Assembly: GCF_003432075.1 (NCBI RefSeq)
Contig: NZ_QWBU01000001.1
Span: 124,001 to 188,000, forward strand
Direction of reading: 5' to 3'
Source: Shinella sp. WSJ-2
GTDB taxonomy: Bacteria; Pseudomonadota; Alphaproteobacteria; Rhizobiales; Rhizobiaceae
Length of the DNA stretch: 64,000 nt
The first letter of the stretch is position 1. Every line of letters starts with the position of its first letter. Shown one piece after another: positions 2,602 to 41,727 of the stretch. Made by a program: the position numbers and the translations under genes. The notes beneath the pieces were generated by a model. That model did not search any database and had not been told where the DNA came from. It saw nothing but the letters and a program-made list of their open reading frames with translations.

Positions 2602-3816
2602 ATGGCAAAGATCAAGGTCGCCAACCCCGTCGTCGAGCTCGACGGCGACGAGATGACGCGCATCATCTGGCAGTTCATCAAGGACAAGCTGATCCACCCC
2701 TACCTGGACATCGACCTTGAATACTACGATCTCGGCATGGAGAACCGCGACGCCACCGACGACCAGGTGACGATCGACGCCGCCAACGCCATCAAGAAGC
2801 ACGGCGTCGGCGTCAAGTGCGCCACGATCACGCCGGACGAGGCCCGCGTCGAGGAATTCAAGCTGAAGAAGATGTGGAAGTCGCCGAACGGCACGATCCG
2901 CAACATTCTCGGCGGCGTCATCTTCCGCGAGCCGATCATCTGCAAGAACGTGCCGCGCCTCGTTCCCGGCTGGACCAAGCCGATCATCGTCGGCCGCCAC
3001 GCCTTCGGCGACCAGTACCGCGCCACCGACTTCAAGTTCCCCGGCAAGGGCAAGCTGACGATGAAGTTCGTCGGCGAAGACGGCAAGGAAATCGAATACG
3101 ACGTGTTCGATGCGCCCTCCGCCGGTGTCGCCATGGGCATGTACAACCTCGACGATTCGATCACCGAATTCGCCCGCGCCTCGTTCAACTACGGCATCCA
3201 GCGCAAGGTACCGGTGTACCTCTCGACCAAGAACACCATCCTCAAGGTCTATGACGGCCGCTTCAAGGATATCTTCCAGCAGGTCTTCGACGCCGAATTC
3301 GCCGACAAGTTCAAGGAACTGAAGATCTGGTACGAACACCGCCTGATCGACGACATGGTCGCCTCGGCGCTCAAGTGGTCCGGTGGTTACGTCTGGGCCT
3401 GCAAGAACTATGACGGCGACGTCCAGTCCGACATCGTGGCCCAGGGCTTTGGCTCGCTCGGCTTGATGACCTCGGTTCTGATGACGCCTGATGGCAAGAC
3501 CGTCGAAGCCGAGGCCGCGCACGGCACGGTGACGCGTCACTACCGCCAGCACCAGAAGGGCGAGGAAACCTCGACCAACTCGATCGCCTCGATCTTCGCC
3601 TGGACCCGTGGCCTCGCCCACCGCGCCAAGCTGGACGGCAATGCGGAGCTCGCCAAGTTCTCCGAAACGCTGGAACGCGTCTGCGTCGACACCGTCGAAT
3701 CGGGCTTCATGACCAAGGACCTCGCGCTCCTCATCGGTCCCGACCAGCCGTGGCTCTCCACGACGGGCTTCCTCGACAAGATCGACGAGAACCTGCGCAA
3801 GGCCATGGCGGCCTGA
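2602..3816 (+). CDS. icd: NADP-dependent isocitrate dehydrogenase
   Basis: TCA-cycle enzyme that oxidatively decarboxylates isocitrate to 2-oxoglutarate with NADP+. At 404 residues it is the eukaryote-like homodimeric type usual in rhizobia, not the longer monomeric form. Visible signatures are [14 protein letters not shown] at residues 10-23, the isocitrate-binding loop [13 protein letters not shown] at 93-105, and [16 protein letters not shown] near residue 310, which contacts NADP. The ATG follows a purine-rich stretch (GAGGCTCCCC), and a strong hairpin terminator lies immediately after the stop. It is monocistronic. Confidence 0.97.
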
Positions 3817-3832
3817 GCCTTAAAACACCGAG

Positions 3833-3864
3833 AAAGCCCGGCCATCGCGCCGGGCTTTTTCTTT
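3833..3864 (+). terminator. Rho-independent terminator of icd
   Basis: A perfect 9-bp stem, AAAGCCCGG at 3833-3841 and CCGGGCTTT at 3850-3858, has an 8-base loop and runs into a T tract (TTTTTCTTTT). It begins 16 bases after the icd stop. Confidence 0.9.
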
Positions 3865-3927
3865 TGGGCAGGCTTGCGACCGCCCCGCCGCGCTCTATTC
3901 TCCCCCTCGCCATTCGAGGAGGACACC

Positions 3928-4566
3928 ATGGCCGACGAGCTCGTTTTCTACAGCAACCCGATGTCGCGCGGGCGCATCGCCCGTTGGATGCTGGAGGAGG
4001 TCGGCGCGCCCTACCGCACCGAATGGCTGACCTATGAAGGCTCGATGAAGGCGCCGGATTATCTCGCGGTCAACCCAATGGGCAAGGTCCCGGCCATCCG
4101 CCACGGCAAGGTGGTCGTGACCGAAGCCGCCGCCATCTGCGCCTATATGGCCGACGCCTTCCCCGAAGCCGGACTTGCCCCGCCCATAAGCCAGCGCGCG
4201 GACTACTACCGCTGGATGTTCTTCGCCGCCGGCCCGGTGGAAATGGCGGTCTCGCTCAAGGCCTTCGGGCTGAGCGTGCCCAAGGAGCGTGAGCGCAGCA
4301 TCGGCTGCGGCAGCTACGAATCGGTGCTGAACGCGCTGTCCTATGCCGTCAGCCGCACACCCTATATCACGGGTGATACCTTTACCGCCGCCGATGTCTA
4401 TGTCGGCTCGCATATCAGCTGGGGCCTGCAATTCGGTTCGCTGGAGGCCCGGCCGGAATATCAGGCCTATTGGGACCGCCTGAAGGATCGCCCCGCCTAT
4501 CTGAAGGCCAAGGCGATCGACGACGAGGAGATGCATCGCCAGCTTGCGGCGATGAAAGCCAGTTAG
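3928..4566 (+). CDS. Glutathione S-transferase family protein
   Basis: Cytosolic GST-fold protein of 212 residues. The N-terminal thioredoxin-like domain (about 3-80) shows YSNPMSRGRIARWMLEE, with Ser10 and Ser13 near the expected catalytic position, then GKVPAI with the cis-proline and TEAAAI, which contacts glutathione. The C-terminal helical domain covers about 90-205 and contains TAADVYVG, the N-capping box region. The start is at 3928 because CGAGGAGG lies just upstream; an in-frame start at 3874 lacks one. The substrate is unknown. It follows icd after a terminator, so it is probably a separate unit. Confidence 0.88.
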   Translation: MADELVFYSNPMSRGRIARWMLEEVGAPYRTEWLTYEGSMKAPDYLAVNPMGKVPAIRHGKVVVTEAAAICAYMADAFPEAGLAPPISQRADYYRWMFFAAGPVEMAVSLKAFGLSVPKERERSIGCGSYESVLNALSYAVSRTPYITGDTFTAADVYVGSHISWGLQFGSLEARPEYQAYWDRLKDRPAYLKAKAIDDEEMHRQLAAMKAS

Positions 4567-27750: not shown

Positions 27751-28071
27751 TCAGGCCTGGCGTTCCGGCACGTGAACCACGAGCCCGTCGAGCGCATCCG
27801 ACATCTTGATCTGACAGGAAAGCCGAGAGGTGGGGCGCACCTCGTAGGCGAAATCCAGCATGTCCTCTTCCATTGCTTCCGGCGGGCCGACAGTGGCGCT
27901 CCACGCGTCATCGACATAGACGTGACAGGTGGCGCAGGCGCAGGCGCCGCCGCATTCCGCCTCGATGCCCGGCACGGAGTTGCGCACGGCATTTTCCATG
28001 ACCGTGGAGCCGTTGGCGACATCCAGTTCGTGGCGCGTGCCGTCGAAGGCGACGATGGTGAGTTTGCTCAT
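27751..28071 (-). CDS. [2Fe-2S] ferredoxin, adrenodoxin type
   Basis: Electron carrier of 106 residues. The cluster ligands are C40, C46, C49 and C86 (spacing C-x5-C-x2-C, then LSC), the ISC/adrenodoxin-like pattern, with an additional C44 between them. The loop with acidic residues [11 protein letters not shown] is where such ferredoxins dock partners. I start at 28071 ([11 protein letters not shown]), the conserved beginning; an open frame runs upstream to 28230. Partners could be a cytochrome P450 or Fe-S assembly, but neither is adjacent. Confidence 0.92.
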
Positions 28072-28276
28072 GATGGCTTCCGGATTCTCAAGAACAGCCC
28101 GAAGCGGGCAAAGGGACGACCGGCGAAAGGGTTTTCCGAAACGCCGGTTTTCCGCCGGACGTTTCCAACAAAACCCCTCTCCAGTCAACATCGCGCGTCG
28201 GACAAGGCCGTGCCCGTCCCGCCGCGCCATGGAGTTTTCCCGCCGCGCCGGGTAGCGACGCGCCCGTCTGCGACGA

Positions 28277-28645
28277 TCAGCGGCAGAGTTTCAGGATGAA
28301 GTTTTCCGCCTCGACGACGGCGGCCGTCACGCCGGCAAGGGAAATAGCATCGGCCGGATTGTCCTCGAGCGCGGCGGCAGCCTTGGCAATGGCATCCGCA
28401 CCGACGGACTGGGCGGAGCCCTTGAGGCGGTGTGCCACGGCGGCACGCGCGGCCCCCTCGCTCGTCGCCAGTTCCTTCATGCTTTCGCGCGCCTGGCGCG
28501 CAAACATCTGCAGCACCTCCAGTTCGAGGGCCTTGTCGCCCATCGTCTGGCGCGCCAGGTGTACCAGATCGATCGGACGTCCGTTCGAAGGCCCCATGCC
28601 GCCGGCATTGTCGGGGGCCTCGAAGGCGATGTTGAGCGCTGCCAT
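28277..28645 (-). CDS. Stand-alone histidine phosphotransfer (Hpt) protein
   Basis: The protein has 122 residues and one Hpt four-helix domain. The phospho-accepting histidine is His72 in [13 protein letters not shown], the classical HxLKGSA motif. The upstream helix ([20 protein letters not shown]) and the downstream Ala-rich helices match. Such proteins relay phosphate between hybrid kinases and response regulators. It is distinct from ChpT, the usual CckA partner. It is divergent from the giant coiled-coil gene. The cognate kinase is unknown. Confidence 0.87.
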
Positions 28646-29174
28646 TTGCTAATTTCCTTTATATGCGATGCACGCTTGTTTCGTTGTGATGCACGCAGAA
28701 GCCGGATACGGCCATGAACCTGTACCGGGATCCGGTGGAAGTCATGGGACACCATTCTGCGGGGCCGGCGCGCCTATCCGATTAAAAGAGGGCGCAATAT
28801 GGGCATGAATCGCAAACTATGGTTAACGGCTGAAAAATTGCGGTTTTCCCTGTTATTCCATTGCGGTACAAAGTCCGCCCACTTTAACTTCCTGTTAAGT
28901 TTCGAGCGAAGGGAGATGGCAATCAATTGTGTGATACAGGCTAATGTGTCACTACGATACGACCGGGATAGTCCCGGTGGATAAGCCGTGCGCGGAGATA
29001 CTTTACGCCACGATTTCGGTTTATCGAGCGCATTTGGAATGAACGGCGGCCTGGACGCTGCTTGCCATGAGGGTAAGCAGCAAGACCGGCCACCCACCGG
29101 ACGGTTCGAAGACGCCTGAGCAGCGGCAGCGCGTATGAGGCCCGTCCCGGAGAATGGTAACGAGGCGTAACCGC
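28646..29174. other. Regulatory region between the Hpt gene and the giant GPR-like gene
   Basis: About 530 bases without a supported gene. It contains a full CtrA-type site (28884-28898), a short perfect inverted repeat ACCGGGA/TCCCGGT near 28962-28978, and AT-rich sequence around 28785-28900 suited to promoters. A 61-codon frame at 28799-28984 on the plus strand has no family resemblance. Confidence 0.55.
28884..28898 (+). promoter_or_regulatory. Candidate CtrA-binding site TTAA-N7-TTAA
   Basis: TTAA at 28884-28887 and TTAA at 28895-28898 are separated by exactly seven bases (CTTCCTG). This is the consensus core of CtrA, the master cell-cycle regulator controlled by CckA, whose gene is also in this window. 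It lies 277 bases upstream of the GPR-like ATG and 239 bases upstream of the divergent Hpt gene. The match is exact for the two half sites, but the distance is longer than usual. Confidence 0.5.
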
Positions 29175-32100
29175 ATGGCGACGAACAAGTCCAACGAGAC
29201 GATCGACGAAAAGGCTTTCCAGGCATTGGAAGAGGCGTTGAAGATCGATTTCGACGATCTGACGCCGGAGACGCCCTCGAAGAAGGATACTTCGGAGGCG
29301 CGCGTGTCTGAACCAGCAAGCCGTGTTTCGACCAAGACCCAGGAGAAGCCGGCAAGCCGCCCGGCAGCGGGCGAAACGCCCCGCAACCTGGCGCCCGAGC
29401 CCGCACCCAAGACCCCCGCCTTCACGCCCGCCAATGACGGTTCGCGCAAATCGCCGGCCGCGATCCTGAAATCGCTGGACGTGCGCTCCAGCCGCTCGTC
29501 GATCCGCACCGCCGTCGTCGCCTCGATCCTTTGGGTCGTCGGCGGCCTCGGCGTTGCCAACCTGCTTTATGCGCCGAAGATCTGGGAGATCCGCTCGGTC
29601 GCCGATCTCGTCGCCCTTCCCGGCGCCATCGGCATGGTCGTCGCCATCGTCATGCCGATCATGCTGTTCTTCGCCTTTGCAATCATGATCTCGCGCGCCC
29701 ATGAACTGCGCAGCGCCGCCCGCTCCATGGCAGAAGTGGCTTTGCGCCTTTCCGAACCGGAAACGGTCGCCACCGATCGCATTATGACTGTCGGCCAGGC
29801 CGTTCGCCGCGAAGTCTCGGCGATGAACGAAGGCATCGAGCGCACCATCGCGCGCGCCACCGAGCTTGAAACGCTCGTACATTCCGAAGTGAATGCACTG
29901 GAGCGCAGCTATACCGACAATGAAATGCGTGTGCGCACGCTGGTGCAGGAACTTGGCTCCGAGCGCGAAGCCATCGTCAGCCATGCCGAGCGCATCCGCT
30001 CCTCGATTTCGGGGGCGCATGAGCAGCTGAAGGACGAGCTCGCCAGCGCCGGCGACAACATCACCCAGCGTCTTGCGACCTCCGGCGAGGCCTTTGCCTC
30101 TATGCTCGACACCCGCGCCGCCATGCTGATGGAAAAGTCCGACAGCGCGACGCAGACGATCGGCGCCATGCTTTCGGCCCGCACCGACAGTCTGCTCTCC
30201 ACCCTCTCCTCCTCGGGCCTGGCGCTCGCCAACGAGTTCGACGCCCGCCTCGATCATCTGACGAAGAACCTCGATTCCCGCGGCCGCGACCTGCTGCAGC
30301 AGTTCGAAACGCGCGCTTCCTCGCTCGACACCAACACCGAGAAGCTGAACGCCGCCCTCAACGAGCGCGCCAAGCAGCTTAACGAGACATTGATCGCCCG
30401 CACCCGCGAGATCAGCGAAAGCCTGTCCGTCGGCCAGCATGCCGTCACCAATGGTCTTGACCAGGTTCTCCAGTCGATGAATGCCGCGCTCGACGAAAAG
30501 GGCGCGCAATTCCGCCAGAGCCTCAAGAATGCCGCCGACGACACGGTAATGGATCTCGACCTGCGCTCGGGCTTCTTCGACGAGCGCCTGCAGGCGACGG
30601 TCGGCCAGATCGCTGGCGCTTTCGACAACCGTGTCGAGGAATTCGCCCAGGCCTTCGACCAGCGCGCCGGTTCGCTCGATTCGAAACTTATGGAAAGCCT
30701 CGGCCGCATCAACGAGACGGTCGCCAGCGGTCGCGATGCGATCGACGGCCTGTTGACCTCCGGGATCGATCGCCTCGGCAACACGCTGACAGACCAGTCT
30801 TTTGCGTTGGCGACGACGCTCGCCACCAGCCAGGAAGTGCTCGAAAGCGCCGTTTCCGGCCATGCGGACGCCATTAACAGCGCCGTTACCGGTGCGCATG
30901 AGCGCGTCGCCGCGGTTCTGTCCGAAAAATCGGCGGCCCTGCTCGGCGGTCTTTCCGATGTGCAGAACCGGATCGAGAGCGGTTTTGGCGCCCGCGCGGA
31001 TGCGCTGGCGGAAAGCATTTCGGGCAGCGAACGCCGCCTGACAGAAGCGCTCGACAATCGCGGCACGGCAATCGCCACCGACATCCAAGCCGCCCAGGTG
31101 CGCATGGAAGAAGCACTTGGCGCGCGCGCCGACGAGATCACCTCGACGATCGCCGCCAGCCACAACCGCCTGGACAGCGCGCTCACCGAACGCACGGCTG
31201 CCCTGTCGGCCATGCTGAACGAAACCGGCAGCCAGCTTGAGCAGTCGGTCGGCTCCGCCGCCGGCCGCGTCGAAAACGCGCTGACGGGTGCCGCCCGCCA
31301 GATCGACGAGGTCATCACCGGCCGCACAGCGAACCTAGCCTCGGTGCTCTCCAACAGCGCGGGCGCCATGCAGTCGTCGATCGACGCCGCTGCAAACCGC
31401 GTCGAGACCGTGTTGACCGAAGGCAGCCGCGAACTTGGCGGCGTCCTCCATGGCCAAGCTGCCGAATTTGCCGATGCTTTCTCCGGGCGCGCCGCGGAGA
31501 TTGCCGAAGCCCTGTCCGGCCGAGCCTCGCAGCTTGCCGGCTCGCTCGTCAACACGCATGAGCAGATCCGCGCCACGCTCGACGACCGAATCAACGCGAT
31601 AAACGTCGCTATCACCGACGGCAAGAACCAGCTTGCTGACACGCTGAACGAGCAGGCCACCAATATCGGCACTTCGATCGCCACTTCGGCTGGCATGCTG
31701 GAAATGTCGCTGGAGCAGCATGAGGAAACGCTTCGCCGTACCATCGACGGCAGCGCCGCCCTGCTCGACCACCGCGTGCGCGAAAGTGCCGGTGCGGTTG
31801 CCGAGCGCCTTGGCGAAACCACGGCAAAAATCGCCGAGGCCGCCGACGCCTTTGGCGCCCGCATGGAGACGACGGTCGACAGCGTCGCAAGCCGCTTCGA
31901 TGCAACGGGCAGTCGCCTGGAAGAAAACCTTGGCAAACTGGAAGCGCGCATCGAACAGAGCGTCGAGCATGTCTCGGGCACCGTCGATACCGCAGCCAGC
32001 CGCATCTCCGACACGCTGTCCGAGCGTCTGGTCGATCTCGATCGCGTCGGCAGCGACGTGTCGCTGCGCGTCTCCGACGCGCTGTCCCGCCCGATCGCCG

Positions 32101-35100
32101 AAGTCGATCGCATCGGCGACGAAACGACGGCACGCATCGCAGCAGCGCTGGCCGGCCGCGTCGGCGACATCGAGCGCGTCAGTGCCGATGCCGCCAGCCG
32201 TATCGAAGGCGCCCTTTCTGGCCGTCTCAGCGATATCGAACGCGTCACGACGGAAGCCGCCGAACGCATCGACAACACCCTGACCGGCCGCGCGCTCGAA
32301 ATCGACCTGATCGCCGAAAACGCCGCCCAGCGCATCGACGCATCCCTTTCCGGGCGCGCTTCCGAAATCGAGCGCATTGCTGGCGACGTTGCCCAGCGCA
32401 TTGATCTCACGCTATCGAGCCGCACCTCCGACCTGGAGCGTGTTGGCGGCGACACCGCGGAGCGCATCGAGAATGTGCTTTCCGGCCGCGCGGCCGAGAT
32501 CGAACGCATTACCGGTGATGCCGCAACACGGCTCGAAGGCACGCTTGCCGAACGCGCAAGCGAAATCGCCCGCGTGACCGGCGAGGCGACAGACAAGATC
32601 GAAGGCACGCTCACCCAGCGCGCCGGCGATATTGAACGCGTCTCCACCGAAGCCTCCGAGCGCATTGCAGCGACCATCGACGAGAAAACCGGCCGTATCG
32701 AAGAACGCCTCAGCACGATGGACCGGGCGCTCACCATCGGTCTCGACGGTGTCAACCGCACGATCGACGGCAAGGCCGCCGGCCTTGCCCAGACGCTGCG
32801 CGAAGCCGTCTCGCAAGCCGCCCAGGACATGGACGCGGAAGCCGTCCGATCCGCCCAGTCGCTTGCCAAGACCGGCGAGGAATTCGCCCATTTGTCGAGT
32901 TCGCTGCGCGGCGCGGTTTCCCGTGCAGCCCAGGAAATGGGCGTCGAAGCCCAGCGTGTCGCGGAAACCATCGCCAAGACGGGCGATGAGTTTGCCGAAA
33001 ACCTCTCGGCTCGCAACGAGGCCTTCACGCGCGCGGTCGACGAGACCACGTCCGCTGCCGTCGCTCGTTTTGCCGAAACGGAAAACCGTCTCGCCAGCCA
33101 GACGCAGTCGCTTCGCACAGGCCTCGGAGACGTAGAGAAGGCATTGGAAGCCCGCGGTGCCTCCATTCGCTCCACGCTTGACGACCGCACGCGTGAACTC
33201 AACTCTATGCTGGCGAGCCGCACGGAAGAACTGTCGCGCCTCATCAACGAGGAAGCCCGTCCTGTCATCGATAACTATGCTGCCGTAGGCCGCGAAGCCG
33301 TCGAGCGGATGGCCGGCGTGGGTCGCGAGACCGCCGAAAGCATCAGCGGCGTCGCCCGCGACAGCGCCGAGCGCCTGCGCAACGAGAATGCCGCGCTGAT
33401 CAACGCGATCTCCGCCCGCACGGCTGATACGCTTGCTGCGATTTCCAGCAGAACGGAAGAAGCGGCCGGCGCGATGCGCGACATCGAGAACGGCCTTGCC
33501 GCCAATGTCGAAGGCCTGATCGCCCGCCTCTCCGAGAGCAACGGCGCGATTGCCGGCCTCGTTGACGCCGCCAGCCAGACGCTCGGCGCCATCGACGGCC
33601 GCCTCACTAGCACATCGGAGCGCTTCACCACTTCCGCCGAACGCGCCGCCGACATGGTCGCCACCACCTCGCGCCTGCTTGAGGGCAAGGTCGATCGCCT
33701 GTCCGACATCTCGGCCGGTACGCTCTCGCAGATCGGCGGCATCGTCGGTCGCTTCGAGGATCACTCGAAGATCCTGTCGCAGGCCTCCGACCTGCTCGCC
33801 GCCGCCCAGTCGAACCTCGTCTCGACGCTGGAAGAGCGCCAGGACGCGCTGCGTTCGCTCTCCATCGGCCTCGTCCAGCGCTCGGAAGAGATCGAGAAGA
33901 CCATGCAGTCGCTCGAAGGCATGGTCGAGGGTGTCTTCACCCGCGCCGAGGAACGCTCCAACCTGATCGCCGGCAATCTGCGCGGCGGTATCCAGAGCTC
34001 GTTTGCGGAAGTGGGTCGCATTCTCGGCGAAACCGAGAAGCGCGCGGAAGCCGCGGCCAGCACCCTGCGGGACTCGTTGGTCAAGGCGGGCGAAGAGGCG
34101 GGCCAGTCCGTCGAGGGCGCCTTCGTGCGCGCCGAGGAGCGGACCAAGGAAGTGGCAAACCGCCTGCGCGGCAGCGTCGGCGCCTCGCTTTCCGATGTGG
34201 ACCGCCTGCTCTCGGAGTCCGGCAAGAAGTCCGAGGCCGCCACGACCGTCATGCGCGAATCCATGCGCGAGGCCGTCGAGGAGGCCATCGGCAAGTTCTC
34301 CGGTGCGACCGAAGAAATCCGCCGTGCTGCTTCCGAAATCCGCAAGGAACTCGACCAGACCCGTGGCGAACTGAAGCGCGGCGCCTTCGACCTTCCGGAA
34401 GAAGCCAAGGAAAACGCCGCCCAGATGCGCCGTGCCGTCAGCGAGCAGATCAAGGCGTTGCAGGACCTGTCCGACATCATCGGCAAGTCCTCCTCGGCGC
34501 TCGAAGTCTCCCGTCCGGCCGTCCAGCAGCCCGTGGTGCAGCAGCAGCCGGTGCAGGAAACCCGTGCCGTCGAGCCGCGCCGCGAAGAGCCGGCCCAGCT
34601 GCGTGGCACCCTCGGCCTCGAACGTGCGGCCAGCACCACCGTGCCGCAGCGTGCACAGCCCCTGCCCGCCGAGACCGATCCCAAGGCAGCGGGTGAAGGT
34701 GGGTGGATGCGTGACCTGCTGCGCGGCGCCGTCTCACGCGAGGAGGCGCAGTTCGCCCAGCCGCGCGGCGAGGCCCAGGCCGCCCGCCCGGCCGACACGC
34801 GCAACCCGCGCCACGTTGTGGAATCGCTGAACTCGCTTTCCGTCGACATTGCCCGCGCCATCGATCACGATGCCTCGGTCGACCTGTGGCGCCGTTACCA
34901 GCGTGGCGAGCGCGACGTCTTCACGCGTCGCCTCTACACGCTAAAGGGCCAGCAGACCTTCGACGAAATCAAACGCAAGTACGAGCGCGAGCCGGAATTC
35001 CGCACTGCAGTCGACCGTTACATCTCGGACTTCGAAAAGCTGCTTGCCGACGTCGCCCGTAACGACCGCGACAAGGTGATGACTCAGACCTACCTCACCT

Positions 35101-35156
35101 CGGATACCGGCAAGGTCTATACCATGCTGGCCCATGCGGCAGGCCGCTTCAGCTAA
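29175..35156 (+). CDS. gpr: Giant coiled-coil growth-pole-ring (GPR/RgsE-like) protein
   Basis: The protein has 1993 residues. Residues 1-105 are Pro/Ala/Glu-rich and cytoplasmic-looking; two membrane helices lie at about 112-133 and 150-178. From about 200 to 1800 the chain is almost purely alpha-helical, rich in Ala, Glu, Arg, Ser and Asp, with 11/22-residue periodicity; ten contiguous 22-residue units cover residues 949-1168. A Pro/Gln-rich linker follows, then a conserved C-terminal domain (about 1870-1993) with SLNSLSVDIARAIDHDASVD and WRRYQRGERDVFTRRL. This is the layout of the Agrobacterium Growth Pole Ring protein and Sinorhizobium RgsE, which organise unipolar growth. ATG 29175 is chosen over 29154 for its ribosome-binding site. 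A terminator follows. Confidence 0.88.
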   Translation: MATNKSNETIDEKAFQALEEALKIDFDDLTPETPSKKDTSEARVSEPASRVSTKTQEKPASRPAAGETPRNLAPEPAPKTPAFTPANDGSRKSPAAILKSLDVRSSRSSIRTAVVASILWVVGGLGVANLLYAPKIWEIRSVADLVALPGAIGMVVAIVMPIMLFFAFAIMISRAHELRSAARSMAEVALRLSEPETVATDRIMTVGQAVRREVSAMNEGIERTIARATELETLVHSEVNALERSYTDNEMRVRTLVQELGSEREAIVSHAERIRSSISGAHEQLKDELASAGDNITQRLATSGEAFASMLDTRAAMLMEKSDSATQTIGAMLSARTDSLLSTLSSSGLALANEFDARLDHLTKNLDSRGRDLLQQFETRASSLDTNTEKLNAALNERAKQLNETLIARTREISESLSVGQHAVTNGLDQVLQSMNAALDEKGAQFRQSLKNAADDTVMDLDLRSGFFDERLQATVGQIAGAFDNRVEEFAQAFDQRAGSLDSKLMESLGRINETVASGRDAIDGLLTSGIDRLGNTLTDQSFALATTLATSQEVLESAVSGHADAINSAVTGAHERVAAVLSEKSAALLGGLSDVQNRIESGFGARADALAESISGSERRLTEALDNRGTAIATDIQAAQVRMEEALGARADEITSTIAASHNRLDSALTERTAALSAMLNETGSQLEQSVGSAAGRVENALTGAARQIDEVITGRTANLASVLSNSAGAMQSSIDAAANRVETVLTEGSRELGGVLHGQAAEFADAFSGRAAEIAEALSGRASQLAGSLVNTHEQIRATLDDRINAINVAITDGKNQLADTLNEQATNIGTSIATSAGMLEMSLEQHEETLRRTIDGSAALLDHRVRESAGAVAERLGETTAKIAEAADAFGARMETTVDSVASRFDATGSRLEENLGKLEARIEQSVEHVSGTVDTAASRISDTLSERLVDLDRVGSDVSLRVSDALSRPIAEVDRIGDETTARIAAALAGRVGDIERVSADAASRIEGALSGRLSDIERVTTEAAERIDNTLTGRALEIDLIAENAAQRIDASLSGRASEIERIAGDVAQRIDLTLSSRTSDLERVGGDTAERIENVLSGRAAEIERITGDAATRLEGTLAERASEIARVTGEATDKIEGTLTQRAGDIERVSTEASERIAATIDEKTGRIEERLSTMDRALTIGLDGVNRTIDGKAAGLAQTLREAVSQAAQDMDAEAVRSAQSLAKTGEEFAHLSSSLRGAVSRAAQEMGVEAQRVAETIAKTGDEFAENLSARNEAFTRAVDETTSAAVARFAETENRLASQTQSLRTGLGDVEKALEARGASIRSTLDDRTRELNSMLASRTEELSRLINEEARPVIDNYAAVGREAVERMAGVGRETAESISGVARDSAERLRNENAALINAISARTADTLAAISSRTEEAAGAMRDIENGLAANVEGLIARLSESNGAIAGLVDAASQTLGAIDGRLTSTSERFTTSAERAADMVATTSRLLEGKVDRLSDISAGTLSQIGGIVGRFEDHSKILSQASDLLAAAQSNLVSTLEERQDALRSLSIGLVQRSEEIEKTMQSLEGMVEGVFTRAEERSNLIAGNLRGGIQSSFAEVGRILGETEKRAEAAASTLRDSLVKAGEEAGQSVEGAFVRAEERTKEVANRLRGSVGASLSDVDRLLSESGKKSEAATTVMRESMREAVEEAIGKFSGATEEIRRAASEIRKELDQTRGELKRGAFDLPEEAKENAAQMRRAVSEQIKALQDLSDIIGKSSSALEVSRPAVQQPVVQQQPVQETRAVEPRREEPAQLRGTLGLERAASTTVPQRAQPLPAETDPKAAGEGGWMRDLLRGAVSREEAQFAQPRGEAQAARPADTRNPRHVVESLNSLSVDIARAIDHDASVDLWRRYQRGERDVFTRRLYTLKGQQTFDEIKRKYEREPEFRTAVDRYISDFEKLLADVARNDRDKVMTQTYLTSDTGKVYTMLAHAAGRFS
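32019..32678 (+). repeat. Ten tandem 66-base units encoding 22-residue apolipoprotein-like repeats
   Basis: Ten units of exactly 22 residues follow one another with no gap, residues 949-1168 of the GPR-like protein. The pattern is x-G-R/E-R-x-x-(D/E)-I-E-R-V then x-x-(D/E)-A-x-x-R-I then x-x-x-L. Typical units begin SGRLSDIERV, TGRALEIDLI and SGRASEIERI. Conserved hydrophobic positions alternate with acidic and arginine positions, as in amphipathic apolipoprotein helices. The nucleotide sequence is diverged between units, so the duplication is old. Confidence 0.85.
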
Positions 35157-35445: not shown

Positions 35446-36423
35446 ATGATATTTATCCAGGGATTTGGACGCGGGCTGGCAACGCTGGCGATTGCGCTGA
35501 TGACGATCGTCACGGTCGTTGACGTCGCCGAAGCGCGCCGCGCCGGCGGTGGTTTCGGCAGCCGCGGCACGCGGACATTCTCGACGCCGTCGACGACGCG
35601 CACCTCGCCGACGGAAGCCCAGCCGATCGACCGCACCATGACGCGCCAGCAGTCGGCACAGCCCTCCGCCGGCCGCAACACCACGACCGCAACGAACCCG
35701 CGCCCCGGCCTGTTCGGCGGCTTTGGCGGCAGGCTGCTCGGCGGCCTGATGCTCGGCGGCCTTGTCGGCATGCTGCTAGGCTCCGGCTTGGGCGGCGGCA
35801 TCGGCTTTCTCGGCCTCATCCTGCAGGTGGCGCTAATCGCCGGCCTGTTCTTCTTCCTGCGGCGCATGTTCGCGCAGCGCAACGCGCCGGCCTATGCCGG
35901 CAGCGGCCAGGCCCGCAGCGCATATCAGGGCGGCGCCTCCGATTTCGAAATCCCGCGCATCGGTGGCGGCAGCCGACAGGCAGCACCCGCTCAGCCGAAA
36001 AACAATGACGAAATCGGCGTCCAGCAGGCGGATCTCGAACAGTTCGAAAGCATGCTGAAGGAACTGCAAGCGGCCTATGCGGCCGAAGACTTCCGCACGC
36101 TGCGCCAGATCACGACGCCAGAAGCCATGTCCTATCTCGCCGAGGAGCTGAGCGACAACGCTACCCAAGGTCTGAAGAACGAGGTCAGGGATATCCACCT
36201 CGTTCAAGGCGACGTGGCCGAAGCCTGGCGCGAAGGGTCGGATGAATATGCGACCGTCGCGATGCGTTACGAAAGCATCGACGTGATGCGCGACCGTGCG
36301 ACCGGCCGCCTCGTTTCCGGCGACCCGGACAATCTGACGGAAGCCGTCGAGATCTGGACGTTCCTGCGCCGCAACGGCGGCGAGTGGAAAGTCTCTGCCA
36401 TCCAGGGCGTCGCCGACGCCTGA
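35446..36423 (+). CDS. Tim44-like domain membrane protein
   Basis: The protein has 325 residues. A signal-like N-terminal segment (LATLAIALMTIVTVVDVAEA) is followed by a Ser/Thr/Pro-rich stretch, then a Gly-rich hydrophobic region at about 85-140 (LFGGFGGRLLGGLMLGGLVG and onward, with LILQVALIAGLFFFLRRMF) that is probably one or two membrane helices. The C-terminal Tim44-like domain (about 190-322) has LEQFESMLKELQAAYAAEDF, and ends EIWTFLRRNGGEWKVSAIQG. Tim44-like domains bind membranes and protein partners; the bacterial role is unknown. It is downstream of the GPR-like gene but separated from it by a terminator and a repeat. Confidence 0.87.
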   Translation: MIFIQGFGRGLATLAIALMTIVTVVDVAEARRAGGGFGSRGTRTFSTPSTTRTSPTEAQPIDRTMTRQQSAQPSAGRNTTTATNPRPGLFGGFGGRLLGGLMLGGLVGMLLGSGLGGGIGFLGLILQVALIAGLFFFLRRMFAQRNAPAYAGSGQARSAYQGGASDFEIPRIGGGSRQAAPAQPKNNDEIGVQQADLEQFESMLKELQAAYAAEDFRTLRQITTPEAMSYLAEELSDNATQGLKNEVRDIHLVQGDVAEAWREGSDEYATVAMRYESIDVMRDRATGRLVSGDPDNLTEAVEIWTFLRRNGGEWKVSAIQGVADA

Positions 36424-36484: not shown

Positions 36485-37102
36485 TTAGATAGTGGAGAGC
36501 GTCCAGCCGACGATATCGGCGGTCACCCGCGCGAAGGCAGCGTCGAGCGCCTTCACAAAGGCTGGATTGCCTGCGCCGCTAACCGGTACCGTCGCGCGGA
36601 AAACCTTTTGCGAGCGAACCGTGCCGTTGCGATCATTGAGCAGCTTGGCCGAGATTTCCACGACGGCCGTATCTGCACCCGACGCCTGTACCTCGAAGGA
36701 CCTTATGTCGGTGACGAGTTGGTAATCGATTGCAAGGCCCTGCCCCGGCATGCCGACTCCACCGAGACGACCGGTATTCTCAAACGCCTGGACGAGCTTG
36801 GCCTGCACCATTTTGCTCAGGCTGTCGCTCCATTGCGCCTTGGCGAGATACTGGATTTCCGACGGCGTGGGGCGGATGACGATCTGCTCGCTGTCGAGCG
36901 CCTTCAGAGCCGAAGGTTGCGGCACGAGAAGCTGGCGGCTCTTGGCAGACGGACCTTCGACGGAGGACTGCGCAGAAAGACTGAACGTATCGTTGTTCGC
37001 TGCCTTGCTACCGCACGCGGCAAGCGTTGCCGCCAGAACGGCGATCAGGGCAGCGCGCGCCGCCGTTCCGTTCCGCAACAACTCCATACCCGGTACTGTC
37101 AT
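36485..37102 (-). CDS. ABC-type transport auxiliary lipoprotein (PqiC-like)
   Basis: Predicted outer-membrane lipoprotein of 205 residues. The lipobox LAAC puts the acylated cysteine at residue 30, followed by GSKAANND. The mature domain (about 50-200) has the ABC_trans_aux fold seen in PqiC: LVPQPSALKALDSEQI, PTPSEIQYLAKAQWSDSLSK, LAIDYQLVTDIRSFEV and a C-terminal helix. The last gene of an MCE transport operon, it probably bridges the MCE protein and the outer membrane. GAGGACGAG precedes the ATG. It replaces the MlaC/MlaB position of the E. coli operon. Confidence 0.88.
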   Translation of the reverse strand: MTVPGMELLRNGTAARAALIAVLAATLAACGSKAANNDTFSLSAQSSVEGPSAKSRQLLVPQPSALKALDSEQIVIRPTPSEIQYLAKAQWSDSLSKMVQAKLVQAFENTGRLGGVGMPGQGLAIDYQLVTDIRSFEVQASGADTAVVEISAKLLNDRNGTVRSQKVFRATVPVSGAGNPAFVKALDAAFARVTADIVGWTLSTI

Positions 37103-37229: not shown

Positions 37230-38600
37230 TCAGCGCCGCGTGCGGCCGTCATATTGTTTCACCGTCTCGCCGCCGAACAGCAGGCGCTGCGGATCGCGCT
37301 CAAAGCCCGAGATCGCGCTGTCGAGGTTCTGGATCGTGCGGCGCGTATCCTGCACCAGCGTTTCCACATCGCGCAGACCCGAGCCGGAGAAGCGCTGGAG
37401 GCCGTCGGCGATCGGCCCGATGCGACCATTCAGCGTATCGGCGGCCTGCTTGATCGATTGCAGCGTGGCCTTCGCCTCCGCAAAGAGCGATTCGGAATCT
37501 CCCTCGCCCAGGAAACCGTCGAGCTTGGCGAGCACGCCATCGACGCGCGTGGAGGCGGCGTTCAGCTTGTTGGTCATCTGCTTAACATCGGTGATGATCT
37601 GGTCGATATCGCCCTGACGCTCACCGATACGGTTGGCGACGCCTGTCACCGAGGCGACAGCCTTACGGGCATCGGCGCTTGCCACCGAGATATTGTCGAT
37701 CGCGCCAGAGACCTTCTGCGTGTCGACGGCGGCGATCAGCGTATCGACCTTGTCGAGCGCCGCATTGGCATTCTTGCCGAACGTATCGAAGGTCTCGGCC
37801 GTCTTGCGGAAGCCCTCAACTGTCGTCTTCACGTCACCGGAGGCAGCCGCAATATCCTTGCTGATCTTGTCGACATTGCCGACGAAATCCTCGACCTTCT
37901 TGGGATCGACGGCCTTGATGAGGGAATCGACCGACGCAAGCGTCGAATCCAGCCGGCCGGAAAGATTACGGAACGTTTCCGACAGACCGCCGACACTCTT
38001 CAGGAACTCATCGATGTTCTTACCGTTGCGGGCAAGCGAATCGGAGAACTGTTCGGCATTGTTGATCGTCGTGGTCAGCGGTCCGCGCGCATCTGCGACA
38101 AAGCCCTGAATGTCGGTGATGGCGGCATCGGCGCGCTTCAGAATCTTGTCGGCGGTCGACAGGATATTGGTCACGCTCGACTGCTCGGCCTGTAGCACGG
38201 CGGCCGTCTCGGTGTCGAAAGCCTTCTGGAGAATGTTCGGATCGGCAGCGGTGCCACCGGAGAGCTCGATATAGGCGGCTCCCGTCAGGCCCTGCACTTC
38301 AAGCACGGCGGTGGTCGATTGCTTGACCGGCGCGCTCGTCGCCACCTCCGTCATGGCGACGGAAAAGCGCGGGTCGTCGGCATCGATGGCAAGGCTGCGG
38401 ACGGAGCCGACCGGAATACCGTTGAAACGTACCGGCGAGCCGATGCTGAGACCGTTGGCGGAGCCCGGAATGCGGATGGCGAGCTGCGCCATGTCGCCGC
38501 TACGGCCGTATTGCGACATCCAGTAGACGAAGCCGAAGGCGGCGGCCATCACGAGCACGGTGAAGAAACCGACGATGGCGTAATTGGCTTTCGTTTCCAT
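37230..38600 (-). CDS. mlaD: MCE-family (MlaD-like) membrane-anchored lipid-transfer protein
   Basis: The protein has 456 residues with one N-terminal membrane helix (about 8-28) and one MCE domain (about 38-115, with GLSIGSPVRFNGIPVGSVRSLAID and TGAAYIEL). A long helical tail of about 330 residues follows, rich in Asp, Thr and Ala with repeated V/I-x-x-I/L patterns, likely to form a tunnel or needle like those of LetB/Mce proteins. This is about 270 residues longer than E. coli MlaD. The gene lies between the ATPase gene upstream and the PqiC-like lipoprotein gene downstream. Confidence 0.93.
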   Translation of the reverse strand: METKANYAIVGFFTVLVMAAAFGFVYWMSQYGRSGDMAQLAIRIPGSANGLSIGSPVRFNGIPVGSVRSLAIDADDPRFSVAMTEVATSAPVKQSTTAVLEVQGLTGAAYIELSGGTAADPNILQKAFDTETAAVLQAEQSSVTNILSTADKILKRADAAITDIQGFVADARGPLTTTINNAEQFSDSLARNGKNIDEFLKSVGGLSETFRNLSGRLDSTLASVDSLIKAVDPKKVEDFVGNVDKISKDIAAASGDVKTTVEGFRKTAETFDTFGKNANAALDKVDTLIAAVDTQKVSGAIDNISVASADARKAVASVTGVANRIGERQGDIDQIITDVKQMTNKLNAASTRVDGVLAKLDGFLGEGDSESLFAEAKATLQSIKQAADTLNGRIGPIADGLQRFSGSGLRDVETLVQDTRRTIQNLDSAISGFERDPQRLLFGGETVKQYDGRTRR

Positions 38601-38660: not shown

Positions 38661-39446
38661 TCACGCCTTCCGAACGATGGAGCGCGCACGTTTGCCCTTG
38701 AAATAGGACTGCACCCACGCATCGTCAAAGGCCAGCATGTCCTCGATCGTGCCTTCGACCATGACCTTCTTCTGCCCGAGCACCGCGATGCGGTCGCAAA
38801 CCGAAAACAGGCTGTCGAGGTCGTGAGTCACCATATACACGGTCAATCCCAGAGTGTCGCGCAGTTTGGCGATCAGCTCGTCGAATTCGGCTGCACCGAT
38901 CGGGTCGAGACCTGAGGTCGGCTCGTCGAGAAAGACCAGCGCCGGATCGAGCGCGAGCGCGCGCGCCAGTGCCGCGCGCTTGATCATGCCGCCGGAGAGT
39001 TCGGACGGATATTTGTCGGCGGCTTCCGGGGCAAGACCGACCAACTCGATCTTCAGCTTGGCCAGCTCGTCCATCATCGCCTGCGGCAGGTCGAGATATT
39101 CGCGCATCGGCACCTGGATGTTCTCCTTCACCGTCAGCGAGGAGAACAGGGCGCCGTGCTGGAAGAGCACGCCGAGCTTCATGTCAAGCGCGAGGCGCTG
39201 GGCCTGCGTCGCCTTGTCGAAATCCGTGCCGAAGATGCGGATATTGCCGGAACGGCGCGGCAGGAGACGCAGCACCGTGCGCATCAGCACGGACTTGCCG
39301 GTGCCAGAGGCGCCGACAAAGCCGAGAATTTCGCCGCGATAAATATCGAGGTTCAGCCGATCGAGCACGATATTGCTGCCGAAGCCCACGGTCAGATCCT
39401 TGACCGAAAGTACGACATTATCCTGTTTTTCAGGAGCCTGATCCAT
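38661..39446 (-). CDS. mlaF: MlaF-like ABC transporter ATP-binding protein
   Basis: ATPase energising lipid transport between the membranes. The protein has 261 residues with Walker A GASGTGKS, Q-loop HGALFSSLTV, signature LSGGMIKRAALARALA, and Walker B LVFLDEPTSGLD followed by the switch histidine in VTHDLDSLF. It begins eight bases after the permease stop, in the same operon. Confidence 0.96.
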   Translation of the reverse strand: MDQAPEKQDNVVLSVKDLTVGFGSNIVLDRLNLDIYRGEILGFVGASGTGKSVLMRTVLRLLPRRSGNIRIFGTDFDKATQAQRLALDMKLGVLFQHGALFSSLTVKENIQVPMREYLDLPQAMMDELAKLKIELVGLAPEAADKYPSELSGGMIKRAALARALALDPALVFLDEPTSGLDPIGAAEFDELIAKLRDTLGLTVYMVTHDLDSLFSVCDRIAVLGQKKVMVEGTIEDMLAFDDAWVQSYFKGKRARSIVRKA

Positions 39447-39454
39447 CTGTGCCC

Positions 39455-40672
39455 CTAGAAATCGATGGCTGCATAGAACATGGCGAAGAGACCGTCGACG
39501 AGGATGACGACGAAGATCGACTTCACCACGGCCGCCGTGACATGGCGTCCGAGCGATTCGGCGCTGCCGCCGACTTTCAGGCCCTCCACCGCGGCGACGA
39601 TACCGATGATCAACGCCATGAAGGGCGCCTTGATCATGCCGGAAACCACGGTCGAGAGATCGATGGCTTCCCGCAGACGCGACAGGAACGTGTCGAAGGT
39701 TATGCCGGAATAGGCCCAGGCGACGCAGGCCGCGCCAAACAGCGCGGCGAAGTTCGCAATGATGGTGAGCAGCGGCAGTGCGACGGTCAACGCCACGAGC
39801 CTTGGGAAGACGAGCACGCCGACGGGGCTGAGGCCCATGACCTTCAGCGCATCGATCTCCTCGCGCATCTTCATCGAGCCGATCTCGGCGGTGATGGCGC
39901 TGCCGGAGCGGCCGGCAATCATGATCGCGGTCAAGAGAACACCGATTTCGCGCAGCTGCAGGATGCCCACGAGATCGACGACGAAGACCTCCGCCCCGAA
40001 ATAGCGCAGCTGGAATGCGCCCTGCTGGGCGATGATCGCGCCGATAAGAAACGACATCAGCAGGATGATCGGCACGGCGCGCACACCCATATGGTCGATC
40101 TGATGCACGATCGCCGCCGGTGAAAGCCCGCTCCGGCGGCCGAGCTTCAGCTGCGCGCCGCGCACCGCCGAGCCGAGAATGAACATGGCTGCGACCATAT
40201 CCTCCCAGGCATCCACCATGACGCGGCCGACCGGCGAGAAGATCCGCTCGAACAACGTGACCCGCTTTGCCTTTTCCGTGCGCGGCTCGGCAAGCTTTTC
40301 GGGCAGAGCGGACACGAGGTCTGCATAACGCTCGCCCTCGCCGTCTCTGAGGTGCACCTCGGCGCCGCCGGATTGCCGCTCGGTGATGGCGCGACGCAGC
40401 AGCCAGGCGCCGGCCGTATCCATTTCGGAGACCTCACTGAGATCGACCTCCAGCGCACCGCCCTTGCCCGCGGCCAAGTCGGCAAGGCGCTTGGCACCGG
40501 TAACGGCGGTCGTGTTCACCCAGTGGCCGGACAGGCGCCAAACCTCCCCGCCATTCTCCGGCAGGCTTTCGCTCACGATATCGGCTGAGGGGCTGGCGGC
40601 TGTGGTCAAGTCTCTTGCATCTTTCCGTGCTTGCGGCACAACATGCGCCTGTCTTATCGGCTCGCCGGCCAT
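39455..40672 (-). CDS. mlaE: MlaE-family permease with N-terminal STAS domain
   Basis: Inner-membrane component of the MCE transporter. The protein has 405 residues, longer than E. coli MlaE (260) because a STAS domain is fused at about residues 30-140 (VWRLSGHWVNTTAV, EVDLSEVSEMDTAGAWLLRR). In E. coli the STAS protein MlaB is separate, so one chain here covers both MlaB and MlaE. The permease domain (about 155-405) has five to six hydrophobic helices, with the conserved GSAITAEIGSMKMREEIDAL and SPVGVLVFPRLVAL. It leads the operon, 71 bases from the divergent epimerase gene. Confidence 0.94.
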   Translation of the reverse strand: MAGEPIRQAHVVPQARKDARDLTTAASPSADIVSESLPENGGEVWRLSGHWVNTTAVTGAKRLADLAAGKGGALEVDLSEVSEMDTAGAWLLRRAITERQSGGAEVHLRDGEGERYADLVSALPEKLAEPRTEKAKRVTLFERIFSPVGRVMVDAWEDMVAAMFILGSAVRGAQLKLGRRSGLSPAAIVHQIDHMGVRAVPIILLMSFLIGAIIAQQGAFQLRYFGAEVFVVDLVGILQLREIGVLLTAIMIAGRSGSAITAEIGSMKMREEIDALKVMGLSPVGVLVFPRLVALTVALPLLTIIANFAALFGAACVAWAYSGITFDTFLSRLREAIDLSTVVSGMIKAPFMALIIGIVAAVEGLKVGGSAESLGRHVTAAVVKSIFVVILVDGLFAMFYAAIDF

Positions 40673-40743: not shown

Positions 40744-41727
40744 ATGCACCGCAGATTGCGCGCAACCGCCGAAACCTTCCCGATTGCCGGAGCCTTCACG
40801 ATTTCCCGCGGCGCCAAGACGACGGCCGACGTCGTCGTCTGCGAAATCGAAGCCTCCGGGCAGGTCGGCCGGGGCGAATGCGTGCCCTATGCCCGCTACG
40901 GCGAATCGGTGCCCGGCGTGCTCTCTGCAATCGAGGAGATGCGCGGTGCCGTCGAGGACAGCATCGGCCGCGAGGCCCTTGCCCGCATCATGCCGGCTGG
41001 AGCCGCCCGCAATGCCATCGACTGCGCCCTTTGGGACCTCGAGGCGAAACTTTCGGGCGTGCCGACCTGGCAGGTCATCAATGCCGCCGCCCCGCGGAAG
41101 CTCGTCACCGCCTACACGCTCTCGCTCGGCGAGCCCGAGGCCATGCAGCGCCAGGCCGCCGAGCATGCCGGCCGCGCCTTGCTCAAGGTGAAGGTCGGCA
41201 CCGCCGACGATGCCGCCCGCATCAGGGCCGTGCGCGCCGGGGCGCCCGACAGCGCGATCATCCTCGACGCCAACGAGGGCTGGACGCCCGAAAACCTCGC
41301 TTATCACTTCGCGATCTGCGCGGAGGCCCGCATCGCGCTCGTCGAACAGCCGCTGCCGGCCGGAAACGATGCGGCGCTTGCCGACCAGGCGCGGCCGATC
41401 CCGGTCTGCGCGGATGAGAGCGTTCATCGCACGGAGGATGTGGCAAAGCTCGTCGACCGCTACGACGCGATCAACATAAAGCTCGACAAGGCCGGCGGCC
41501 TGACGGAAGCGCTGGCGCTACGCGAAGCCGCCCGCGAACACAGGCTGAAGATCATGGTGGGCTGTATGGTCGGCACCTCGCTTGGCATGGCGCCGGCGGT
41601 ACTTTTGGCGCAGGGCGCCGATTTCGTCGATCTCGACGGCCCCCTGCTGCTGGCGCACGACCGAGTGCCTGGTCTGCAATACGAAGGATCGTCGGTCTAT
41701 CCGCCGGAAGCGGCACTCTGGGGCTGA
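40744..41727 (+). CDS. dgcA: Dipeptide epimerase / enolase-superfamily racemase (DgcA-like)
   Basis: The protein has 327 residues of the enolase superfamily, L-Ala-D/L-Glu epimerase group. Catalytic pattern: KVK with Lys148 and Lys150, metal ligands D175 (DANEG), E201 (VEQPLP) and D224 (CADES), and the second base Lys246/Lys249 in NIKLDKAGG. The active-site MVGCMVGTSLGMAPAVLLAQ follows. The enzyme would recycle peptidoglycan-derived dipeptides or racemise N-acyl glutamate; the sequence does not decide. Its last 31 bases overlap the end of the convergent MFS gene. Confidence 0.9.
   Translation: MHRRLRATAETFPIAGAFTISRGAKTTADVVVCEIEASGQVGRGECVPYARYGESVPGVLSAIEEMRGAVEDSIGREALARIMPAGAARNAIDCALWDLEAKLSGVPTWQVINAAAPRKLVTAYTLSLGEPEAMQRQAAEHAGRALLKVKVGTADDAARIRAVRAGAPDSAIILDANEGWTPENLAYHFAICAEARIALVEQPLPAGNDAALADQARPIPVCADESVHRTEDVAKLVDRYDAINIKLDKAGGLTEALALREAAREHRLKIMVGCMVGTSLGMAPAVLLAQGADFVDLDGPLLLAHDRVPGLQYEGSSVYPPEAALWG

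What the first reader, a model, noticed from the sequence alone, without database searches (positions are those of the whole stretch)
29175..35156. Giant growth-pole-ring-like protein as the central object of the window
A 1993-residue chain has two membrane helices near the N-terminus, about 1600 residues of helix with 11/22-residue periodicity, and a separate conserved C-terminal domain. Known GPR (Agrobacterium) and RgsE (Sinorhizobium) proteins of this plan form a ring at the growing pole and are needed for unipolar elongation in Rhizobiales. The direct neighbours, an Hpt phosphotransfer gene and a Tim44-domain membrane protein, might belong to the same polar module; that link is inference.
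Basis: partly seen in the sequence, partly recalled or inferred. Interest (0 to 1): 0.82.

Follow-up and report, generated by a model that had tools for sequence, protein, structure and literature searches.

The report
Growth-pole ring protein and conserved neighbours
The gene is the Shinella version of a known giant protein that marks the growing tip of unipolar bacteria; what looks new is that in many relatives it sits beside a phosphorelay gene and a lipid-transport operon, which suggests how the growing tip might be controlled and fed.

Summary
The 1993-aa ORF at 29175-35156 is real and is an RgsE/GPR orthologue in a genome that is almost certainly Shinella. It aligns end to end with a 2089-aa S. 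meliloti protein of RgsE's published length (44%) and with an A. rubi protein (37%). Its last ~115 residues are a domain with no Pfam or PDB match, found in 284/297 genomes of the order and 108/289 of the class. A Caulobacter protein of TipN's length matches GPR at both ends; one paper already mentions GPR-TipN similarity. The 11/22-residue array is largely confined to the order.

Tim44 is rejected (Shinella only). Two neighbours were missed: a ferredoxin gene and an MCE lipid-transport operon (Brucella Mpc type) converging on gpr in 49/80, 14/34 and 10/60 loci. The hpt-gpr spacer has a CtrA half-site in 69/71 parsed Rhizobiaceae regions. That these links are functional is inference; slow loss of gene order is a serious rival.

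The parts
29175..35156 (+). gpr/rgsE orthologue, 1993 aa
29502..29690 (+). N-terminal two-helix membrane hairpin (residues ~110-172)
   Evidence: hydropathy; profile match to the Caulobacter protein
29772..34511 (+). helical array with 11/22-residue periodicity, PF01442 matches
34512..34796 (+). Pro/Gln-rich linker (~95 residues)
   Evidence: read by eye; the published GPR has a Pro-rich region in the corresponding place
34797..35153 (+). conserved C-terminal domain, 119 aa, all-helical model, no Pfam or PDB match
28277..28645 (-). stand-alone Hpt protein, 122 aa, conserved His at residue 72; divergent from gpr
28819..28826 (-). CtrA-type half-site TTAACCAT (read towards hpt) in the hpt-gpr spacer
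   Evidence: motif named as CtrA half-site in PMC3692519 and used in PMC11527210
28884..28898 (+). TTAA-N7-TTAA full CtrA-type site in the same spacer (4 of 57 relatives have one)
27751..28230 (-). Fer2 [2Fe-2S] ferredoxin-like gene beside hpt (true start may be further in)
36485..37102 (-). ABC_trans_aux lipoprotein (MpcA-like)
37230..38600 (-). MCE protein with long helical C-terminus (MpcD-like)
38661..39446 (-). ABC ATPase (MpcF-like)
39455..40672 (-). MlaE permease with a weak STAS match below cut-off (MpcE-like)
35446..36423 (+). Tim44-domain membrane protein between gpr and the MCE operon, found there only in Shinella; judged not part of the module

Best explanation
The protein is the Shinella orthologue of RgsE/GPR. 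The two N-terminal helices anchor it in the inner membrane. About 1580 residues of amphipathic 11/22-residue repeats form a long cytoplasmic helical array that self-associates and may lie on the membrane. The conserved C-terminal helical domain is the ancestral part and most likely docks client proteins or closes the ring. Together the chains form a ring-like scaffold at the new pole that confines wall and envelope synthesis there. SHOWN here: sequence anatomy, orthology, class-wide domain, conserved neighbours, CtrA-type site. SHOWN in print for relatives: polar ring, loss of rod shape on depletion, need for the C-terminus. INFERRED: that the Shinella protein does the same; that the divergent Hpt belongs to a phosphorelay acting on the ring or its timing; that the convergent Mpc-type operon supplies lipid transport for the same growth zone.
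For: BLASTP 44% over residues 1-1993 vs 1-2089 of the S. meliloti homologue, whose length equals RgsE in PMC7327166; 37% end to end to A. rubi, 48% to S. meliloti 4H41. Domain in 41/41 genomes, own included, 284/297 of the order, 108/289 of the class. Hpt divergent upstream in 77/77, 27/33 and 9/54 loci with at least 900 bp upstream held. MCE operon convergent downstream in 49/80, 14/34 and 10/60, against DUF922 in 4 of 34 and 0 of 60 (27 and 50 of these had 2.6 kb upstream) and Tim44 in 0/34 and 0/60. CtrA half-site in 69/71 spacers; GGTTAA/TTAACC in 57/57 against a shuffled mean of 13.6. Published function of GPR/RgsE: PMC8262873, PMC7327166, PMC9938171.
Against: No experiment in Shinella. 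The A. tumefaciens GPR sequence itself was not held; other Agrobacterium species were used, and A. vitis and Agrobacterium sp. a22-2 aligned only in part. Five in-order genomes with the domain have no match to this Hpt at E 1e-6 (G041, G101, G064, G074, G027), and 45 of 54 outside-order loci have no Hpt nearby, so the scaffold does not require it. The ferredoxin gene stays near gpr in all five in-order loci that have upstream DNA but no Hpt hit there, so neighbour retention need not mean partnership. The half-site as such is in only 5 of 27 further in-order and 1 of 10 outside-order spacers. The domain model rests on 50 rows at 91-100% identity (pLDDT 81.4).
Confidence: 0.82

Rival explanations
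1. The neighbours (hpt, ferredoxin, MCE operon) are kept by neutral inertia of gene order and have no functional tie to the ring.
For: The MCE operon is convergent, so not co-transcribed. Retention outside the order is clustered: 7 of 54 loci have both hpt and MCE, 43 have neither, as shared ancestry would give. S. meliloti Ak57 has the MCE operon 15 kb away. A ferredoxin, with no evident role at the pole, is kept in 31 of 34 in-order loci, even where hpt is gone.
Against: Other flanking genes are lost while these stay: DUF922 4/34 and 0/60, Tim44 0/34 and 0/60. The 26 best of 55 class genomes with an Hpt match are all domain-positive (base rate 108/289); 17 of them were not in the training alignment and 7 are not adjacent to the domain gene.
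Confidence: 0.45
2. The Hpt belongs with the ferredoxin in a separate redox phosphorelay and only shares a promoter region with gpr.
For: The ferredoxin gene lies beyond hpt on the same side in 25 of the 26 in-order loci that have both.
Against: 6 of the 9 outside-order hpt-gpr pairs have no ferredoxin homologue in the stretch held (3 have: L075, L115, L124), and 5 in-order loci have the ferredoxin without an Hpt hit, so the two part company.
Confidence: 0.2
3. Generic coiled coil unrelated to GPR, with similarity due to composition of the repeat.
For: The repeat matches many coiled-coil models, including ZorA (53 bits, cut-off 190), and relatives match SMC models.
Against: Collinear end-to-end 44% identity by BLASTP; 94% over residues 1901-1993; in a global aligner 58% of aligned pairs identical against 23% with the reversed sequence.
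Confidence: 0.02

Closest known systems
RgsE of Sinorhizobium meliloti (SMc00190)
   Same: Architecture, length class (2089 aa), 44-48% identity to S. meliloti homologues along the whole chain, same hpt and ferredoxin neighbours
   Different: 96 residues longer than the window protein; its MCE operon is 15 kb away, beyond an IS110 gene and others, in S. meliloti Ak57, but close by in the window
GPR of Agrobacterium tumefaciens (Atu1348)
   Same: Two N-terminal TMs, PF01442 array, Pro-rich region before the C-terminus; 37% end to end to the A. rubi homologue
   Different: 2115 aa in print; the A. tumefaciens sequence itself was not compared
TipN of Caulobacter crescentus
   Same: The single-copy Caulobacter protein of 823-884 aa matches at the N-terminal hairpin (97.9%, E 5.5e-13) and the C-terminal domain (98.5%, E 2.6e-15); new-pole marker and ectopic poles on overproduction, from passages in print
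   Different: Less than half the length; weak 11-residue and no long-range 44-residue periodicity in the one checked; no hpt or MCE neighbour found in the eight Caulobacter-family stretches examined. That the protein is TipN is inferred from length, topology and copy number
Mpc (mpcEFDA) lipid-transport system of Brucella abortus
   Same: Gene order E-F-D-A and domain content of window 40672-36485 (PMC12436622, abstract, section 7 and passages)
   Different: Its place next to the growth-pole ring gene is not mentioned in the main text ('RgsE' and 'GPR' occur 0 times); the sequences themselves were not compared

Membership tests
RgsE/GPR | two N-terminal transmembrane helices | tested here: met
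   hydropathy peaks at 110 and 154
RgsE/GPR | very long helical region with PF01442 matches | tested here: met
   E 2.5e-59, 7 stretches; lag-11/22 autocorrelation
RgsE/GPR | collinear homology over the whole chain | tested here: met
   44% to the S. meliloti 2089-aa protein, 37% to A. rubi; partial best alignments to A. vitis, Agrobacterium sp. a22-2, two Rhizobium and Hoeflea
RgsE/GPR | conserved C-terminal domain | tested here: met
   94% identical over residues 1901-1993 to S. meliloti; in 41/41 genomes, own included
[quoted passage not shown]
   needs microscopy
RgsE/GPR | depletion causes loss of rod shape | not testable with these tools
   needs genetics
TipN (as wider family) | homologous N-terminal hairpin and C-terminal domain | tested here: met
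   hhalign 97.9% and 98.5%; reversed, column-shuffled, Hpt, MCE and end-swapped controls under 1%
TipN (as wider family) | the Caulobacter protein compared is TipN itself | tested here: inconclusive
   882 aa in two of six Caulobacter-genus genomes read equals TipN's length in PMC13170164; TipN sequence not held
PF01442 apolipoprotein | common descent with animal apolipoproteins | tested here: inconclusive
   score over cut-off, but the long-range array is rare outside the order (1 of 57), which favours convergence
Mpc operon (downstream neighbour) | permease-ATPase-MCE-lipoprotein in order E-F-D-A | tested here: met
   Pfam domains and gene order
ZorA | score over the NCBIfam cut-off | tested here: not met
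   53 bits against 190

The most novel reading that the evidence does not exclude
gpr, hpt and the Mpc-type operon are one conserved polar envelope-growth module of Alphaproteobacteria. A CtrA-timed phosphorelay through the stand-alone Hpt tunes a TipN-related ring, and the ring, through its Rhizobiales-specific amphipathic array, positions Mpc phospholipid transport at the growing pole, so that membrane and wall are extended together.
Probability: 0.28. Interest if true: 0.82.

Novelty: new member of a known kind. Interest (0 to 1): 0.5.

Why it matters
The protein itself is a further orthologue of a known factor. What could matter is its setting. How the growth-pole ring works, and whether its apolipoprotein-like repeats have to do with lipids, are posed as open questions in the GPR paper. 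A conserved neighbouring Hpt, a CtrA-type site and an MCE lipid-transport operon give named candidates for single-gene deletions. The C-terminal domain, not the repeat, is the hallmark that joins giant GPR, shorter outside-order relatives and the Caulobacter TipN-length protein, and no Pfam model matched it.

Tried and rejected
Rejected: Tim44 as a module part; ZorA; a PDB relative of the C-terminal domain by sequence (best E 0.11) or fold (best E 0.62, none at E <= 0.001). CC2171 RNA (RF01867) failed as a marker for Caulobacter because it is widespread in the class; HfaD (NF037936) then served. tblastn of four outside-order domains against the plasmid collection found no further named taxon. 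Scans of domain-bearing proteins against NCBIfam and Pfam gave no model for the domain. GANTC sites are fewer, not more, upstream of gpr (19 of 57 loci against a shuffled mean of 45). The main text of the S. meliloti CtrA paper PMC4433202 does not contain SMc00190 or SMc00191 (supplements not open to me), so it gives no support for CtrA control. The RdsA paper PMC9022086 mentions Hpt and GPR apart, found no Hpt gene near rdsA and normal GPR expression on RdsA depletion. The TipN link first looked unreported; PMC8546619 mentions a similarity, so no priority is claimed.

Rows and choices: the neighbour survey read 80 named Rhizobiaceae loci (the best 80 of 579 relatives kept), 34 in-order loci and 60 of the 104 outside-order positive genomes, about one per family by my choice. 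Loci with under 900 bp upstream were left out for Hpt (3 of 80, 1 of 34, 6 of 60). In the spacer scan 70 of 77 eligible loci were parsed, plus the window; earlier parses took 13 and 57. The random-stretch control (34 of 1400) is mostly coding DNA and understates the expectation for spacers; the shuffles are the better yardstick. I lowered the novel case from 0.30 to 0.28, raised the inertia rival from 0.40 to 0.45 and lowered the redox rival from 0.25 to 0.20 for that.
Full report
WHAT IS THERE. The ORF at 29175-35156 (+) encodes 1993 aa. Two hydrophobic helices near residues 110 and 154 are followed by a long Ala/Glu/Ser/Leu/Arg-rich array whose hydropathy repeats every 11 and 22 residues far above 200 shuffles, then a Pro/Gln-rich linker and a C-terminal domain. 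Pfam's apolipoprotein model PF01442 scores E 2.5e-59. The genome is almost certainly Shinella: same-genus genomes have contigs of exactly the lengths of named Shinella records (4,605,385 bp, Shinella sp. PSBB067; 1,004,559, 1,259,695, 177,715 and 217,086 bp, Shinella sp. CPCC 101442, S. curvata, S. granuli and S. pollutisoli).

ORTHOLOGY. A S. meliloti record (CP090106.1, annotated 'kinesin') holds a 2089-aa homologue, the published length of RgsE. BLASTP aligns 1-1993 with 1-2089 at 44% identity. In a global alignment 58% of aligned pairs are identical (23% with the reversed sequence); identity is lowest in the repeat (22-58% per 100 residues between 500 and 1500) and 94% over residues 1901-1993. 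A. rubi aligns end to end at 37%, A. albertimagni at 43%, S. meliloti 4H41 at 48%; A. vitis, Agrobacterium sp. a22-2, two Rhizobium and one Hoeflea protein gave only partial best alignments (12 proteins compared). Published RgsE and GPR are 42% identical (PMC7327166, passages). I therefore file the protein as RgsE/GPR. Localisation and depletion phenotypes are known only for relatives: A. tumefaciens (PMC8262873, abstract and sections 3, 5, 9, 12), S. meliloti (PMC7327166, passages) and, for localisation, B. abortus (PMC9938171, passages). The 2019 paper that first described GPR was not held.

THE C-TERMINAL DOMAIN DEFINES A WIDER FAMILY. The domain was found in 41 of 41 genomes, own included, 284 of 297 of the order and 108 of 289 of the class, 104 of those listed as outside the order. 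The window's domain has no Pfam hit at E <= 1, and the other 36 rows only weak scattered ones. There is no PDB sequence match (best E 0.11), and its all-helical AlphaFold model (pLDDT 81.4) has no PDB fold match at E <= 0.001. PMC7327166 already reported distant RgsE homologues in two other orders. The carriers mostly keep the plan 'hairpin, helices, domain': exactly two N-terminal hydrophobic helices at my threshold in 52 of 77 Rhizobiaceae, 25 of 34 further in-order and 39 of 57 outside-order frames, the rest showing none to four. Outside the order they are shorter (median frame 1079 aa, against 1812 in-order and 2150 in Rhizobiaceae), and the long-range array is largely missing: lag-44 autocorrelation exceeds 0.15 in 77 of 77 Rhizobiaceae, 27 of 34 in-order and 1 of 57 outside-order proteins. 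The giant repeat therefore looks like an elaboration within the order on an older scaffold.

TIPN. HfaD (NF037936, accession recalled; the tool gave the name) rings in the control genome Caulobacter vibrioides and, of 14 handles, only in G596 and G383. Their family has one match per positive genome in 70 of 80 genomes. One genus of it, positive in 70 of 75 genomes, contains a 4,655,622-bp chromosome, the length I recall for Caulobacter segnis. The six genomes of that genus that I read encode proteins of 823-884 aa, 882 aa in two; TipN is given as 882 aa (PMC13170164, passage). Profile-profile comparison joins these proteins to the GPR set at the C-terminal domain (98.5%, E 2.6e-15) and at the N-terminal hairpin (97.9%, E 5.5e-13). 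They were picked by the domain search, so the N-terminal match is the independent one. Reversed, column-shuffled, Hpt, MCE and end-swapped controls all stay under 1%. A 2015 review calls TipN Caulobacter-specific (PMC4460556, passage) and a 2026 paper calls it 'analogous', but PMC8546619 already writes that GPR has 'similarity to' TipN (passage). The link is thus supported here in more detail, not discovered here; that the protein compared is TipN itself remains an inference.

HPT. A 122-aa stand-alone Hpt gene is divergent from gpr. Of four Pfam Hpt hits in this genome it is the only one not inside a large frame. An iterated profile found 42 short Hpt proteins among 9007 ORFs of 99 loci; 41 are upstream and divergent, one (L058) upstream on the same strand, and three were seeds (window, S. 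meliloti, Sphingomonas). With at least 900 bp held, the divergent pair is present in 77 of 77 named Rhizobiaceae loci, 27 of 33 further in-order loci (34 loci from 30 family labels, four of the window's own family) and 9 of 54 outside the order, at most 1.2 kb between frames. The phospho-acceptor His is kept in 39 of 42; the exceptions are Leu (Sphingomonas, L049), Trp (L073) and Asn (L035). Against the link: five in-order genomes with the domain have no match to this Hpt, and a sixth only a fragment. For it: of 55 class genomes with a match at E <= 1e-10, the 26 best are all domain-positive (base rate 108 of 289). Nine of the 26 were in the training alignment and 17 were not, several of these of the same genus as a training row; seven are not adjacent to the domain gene (G410, G324, G401, G515, G599, G506, and G596 in a 616-aa frame). 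The cut was chosen after seeing the list; over all 55 it is 32.

TIM44, FERREDOXIN, MCE OPERON. Tim44 is adjacent only in Shinella (3 of 80 Rhizobiaceae loci, 0 of 34, 0 of 60). A Fer2 ferredoxin gene lies in the stretch held in 31 of 34 in-order and 3 of 60 outside-order loci. It stays in all five in-order loci that have upstream DNA but no Hpt hit, and 6 of the 9 outside-order hpt pairs lack it: hpt and ferredoxin come and go apart, and the ferredoxin shows that a gene can be kept here without an obvious polar role. Downstream, a four-gene MCE operon (permease, ATPase, MCE protein, lipoprotein) converges on gpr. Counted by its lipoprotein gene, it does so in 49 of 80 Rhizobiaceae (45 within 1.6 kb), 14 of 34 in-order loci (2 more on the other side) and 10 of 60 outside-order loci; an MCE-protein match lies in the same stretch in 48 of 49, 16 of 16 and 10 of 10. 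Other flanking genes are not kept: DUF922 is in 4 of 34 and 0 of 60, 27 and 50 of which had 2.6 kb upstream. By domains and order the operon matches Brucella Mpc, a Mla-Pqi chimera said to be conserved in numerous Hyphomicrobiales (PMC12436622, abstract, section 7 and passages); its main text contains neither RgsE nor GPR. I found no paper that ties hpt or an MCE system to the growth-pole ring (searches; term look-ups), within the open-access library only.

SPACER. ATGGTTAA, that is TTAACCAT towards hpt, occurs within 600 bp upstream of gpr in 69 of 71 parsed regions (70 of 77 Rhizobiaceae loci plus the window) and never in the other orientation; the GGTTAA core lies near -350 to -390 in 67 of 71 and nearer in 4. 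GGTTAA/TTAACC occurs in 57 of 57 against a shuffled mean of 13.6. TTAACCAT is a CtrA half-site (PMC3692519, passage; used, as atypical, for A. tumefaciens in PMC11527210, passage). In the other in-order loci the half-site is in only 5 of 27, with GTTAAC in 19 of 27 (shuffled mean 2.5); outside the order 1 of 10 and 0 of 10. CtrA binding itself is not shown, and the S. meliloti CtrA paper gave no support in its main text.

MECHANISM. Most likely a membrane-anchored polar scaffold as published for GPR/RgsE. The hairpin anchors, the array self-associates and may bind membrane, and the C-terminal domain is the ancestral docking part: in A. [quoted passage not shown] The Hpt, CtrA-type site and Mpc-type operon suggest phosphorelay timing and lipid supply at the growth zone; these are inferences from gene neighbourhood.

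Noticed in passing
L114 (G515): An 889-aa frame with an Hpt match (E 2.7e-6) lies directly upstream of the domain gene on the same strand: a possible fused version of the Hpt link.
   Followed up: no
L093, L105, L113: Outside the order a ~620-640-aa frame matching ABC ATPases starts 1-49 bp downstream of the domain gene's frame on the same strand; it could be a lipid exporter but was not classified.
   Followed up: no
L213 (G570) and L215 (G341): Short proteins (330- and 344-aa frames) keep two N-terminal hydrophobic helices and a divergent domain with little between: minimal versions of the family.
   Followed up: partly
L229 (G737) 3197-4531: In one of six Caulobacter-genus stretches a frame matching the window's enolase-superfamily gene 40744-41727 (E 2.9e-108) overlaps the end of the TipN-length gene's frame on the same strand; that gene lies just beyond the MCE operon in the window.
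   Followed up: partly
L047 14091-20360: The S. meliloti Ak57 rgsE homologue is annotated 'kinesin', on a 3.7-Mb record labelled plasmid pSymB that looks like a chromosome; an IS110 gene lies downstream.
   Followed up: no
L049 9622-12342: Sphingomonas parapaucimobilis carries a 774-aa relative with a divergent Hpt-like gene lacking the phospho-histidine on an 880-kb replicon.
   Followed up: partly
500 bp upstream of gpr in Rhizobiaceae loci: GANTC sites are depleted (19 of 57 loci, shuffled mean 45).
   Followed up: no
window 35446-36423: The Tim44-domain protein is a second copy beside the genome's stronger Tim44 hit (G000:C6:6113-6544) and sits here in only part of Shinella (4 of 6 Shinella-labelled loci).
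   Followed up: partly
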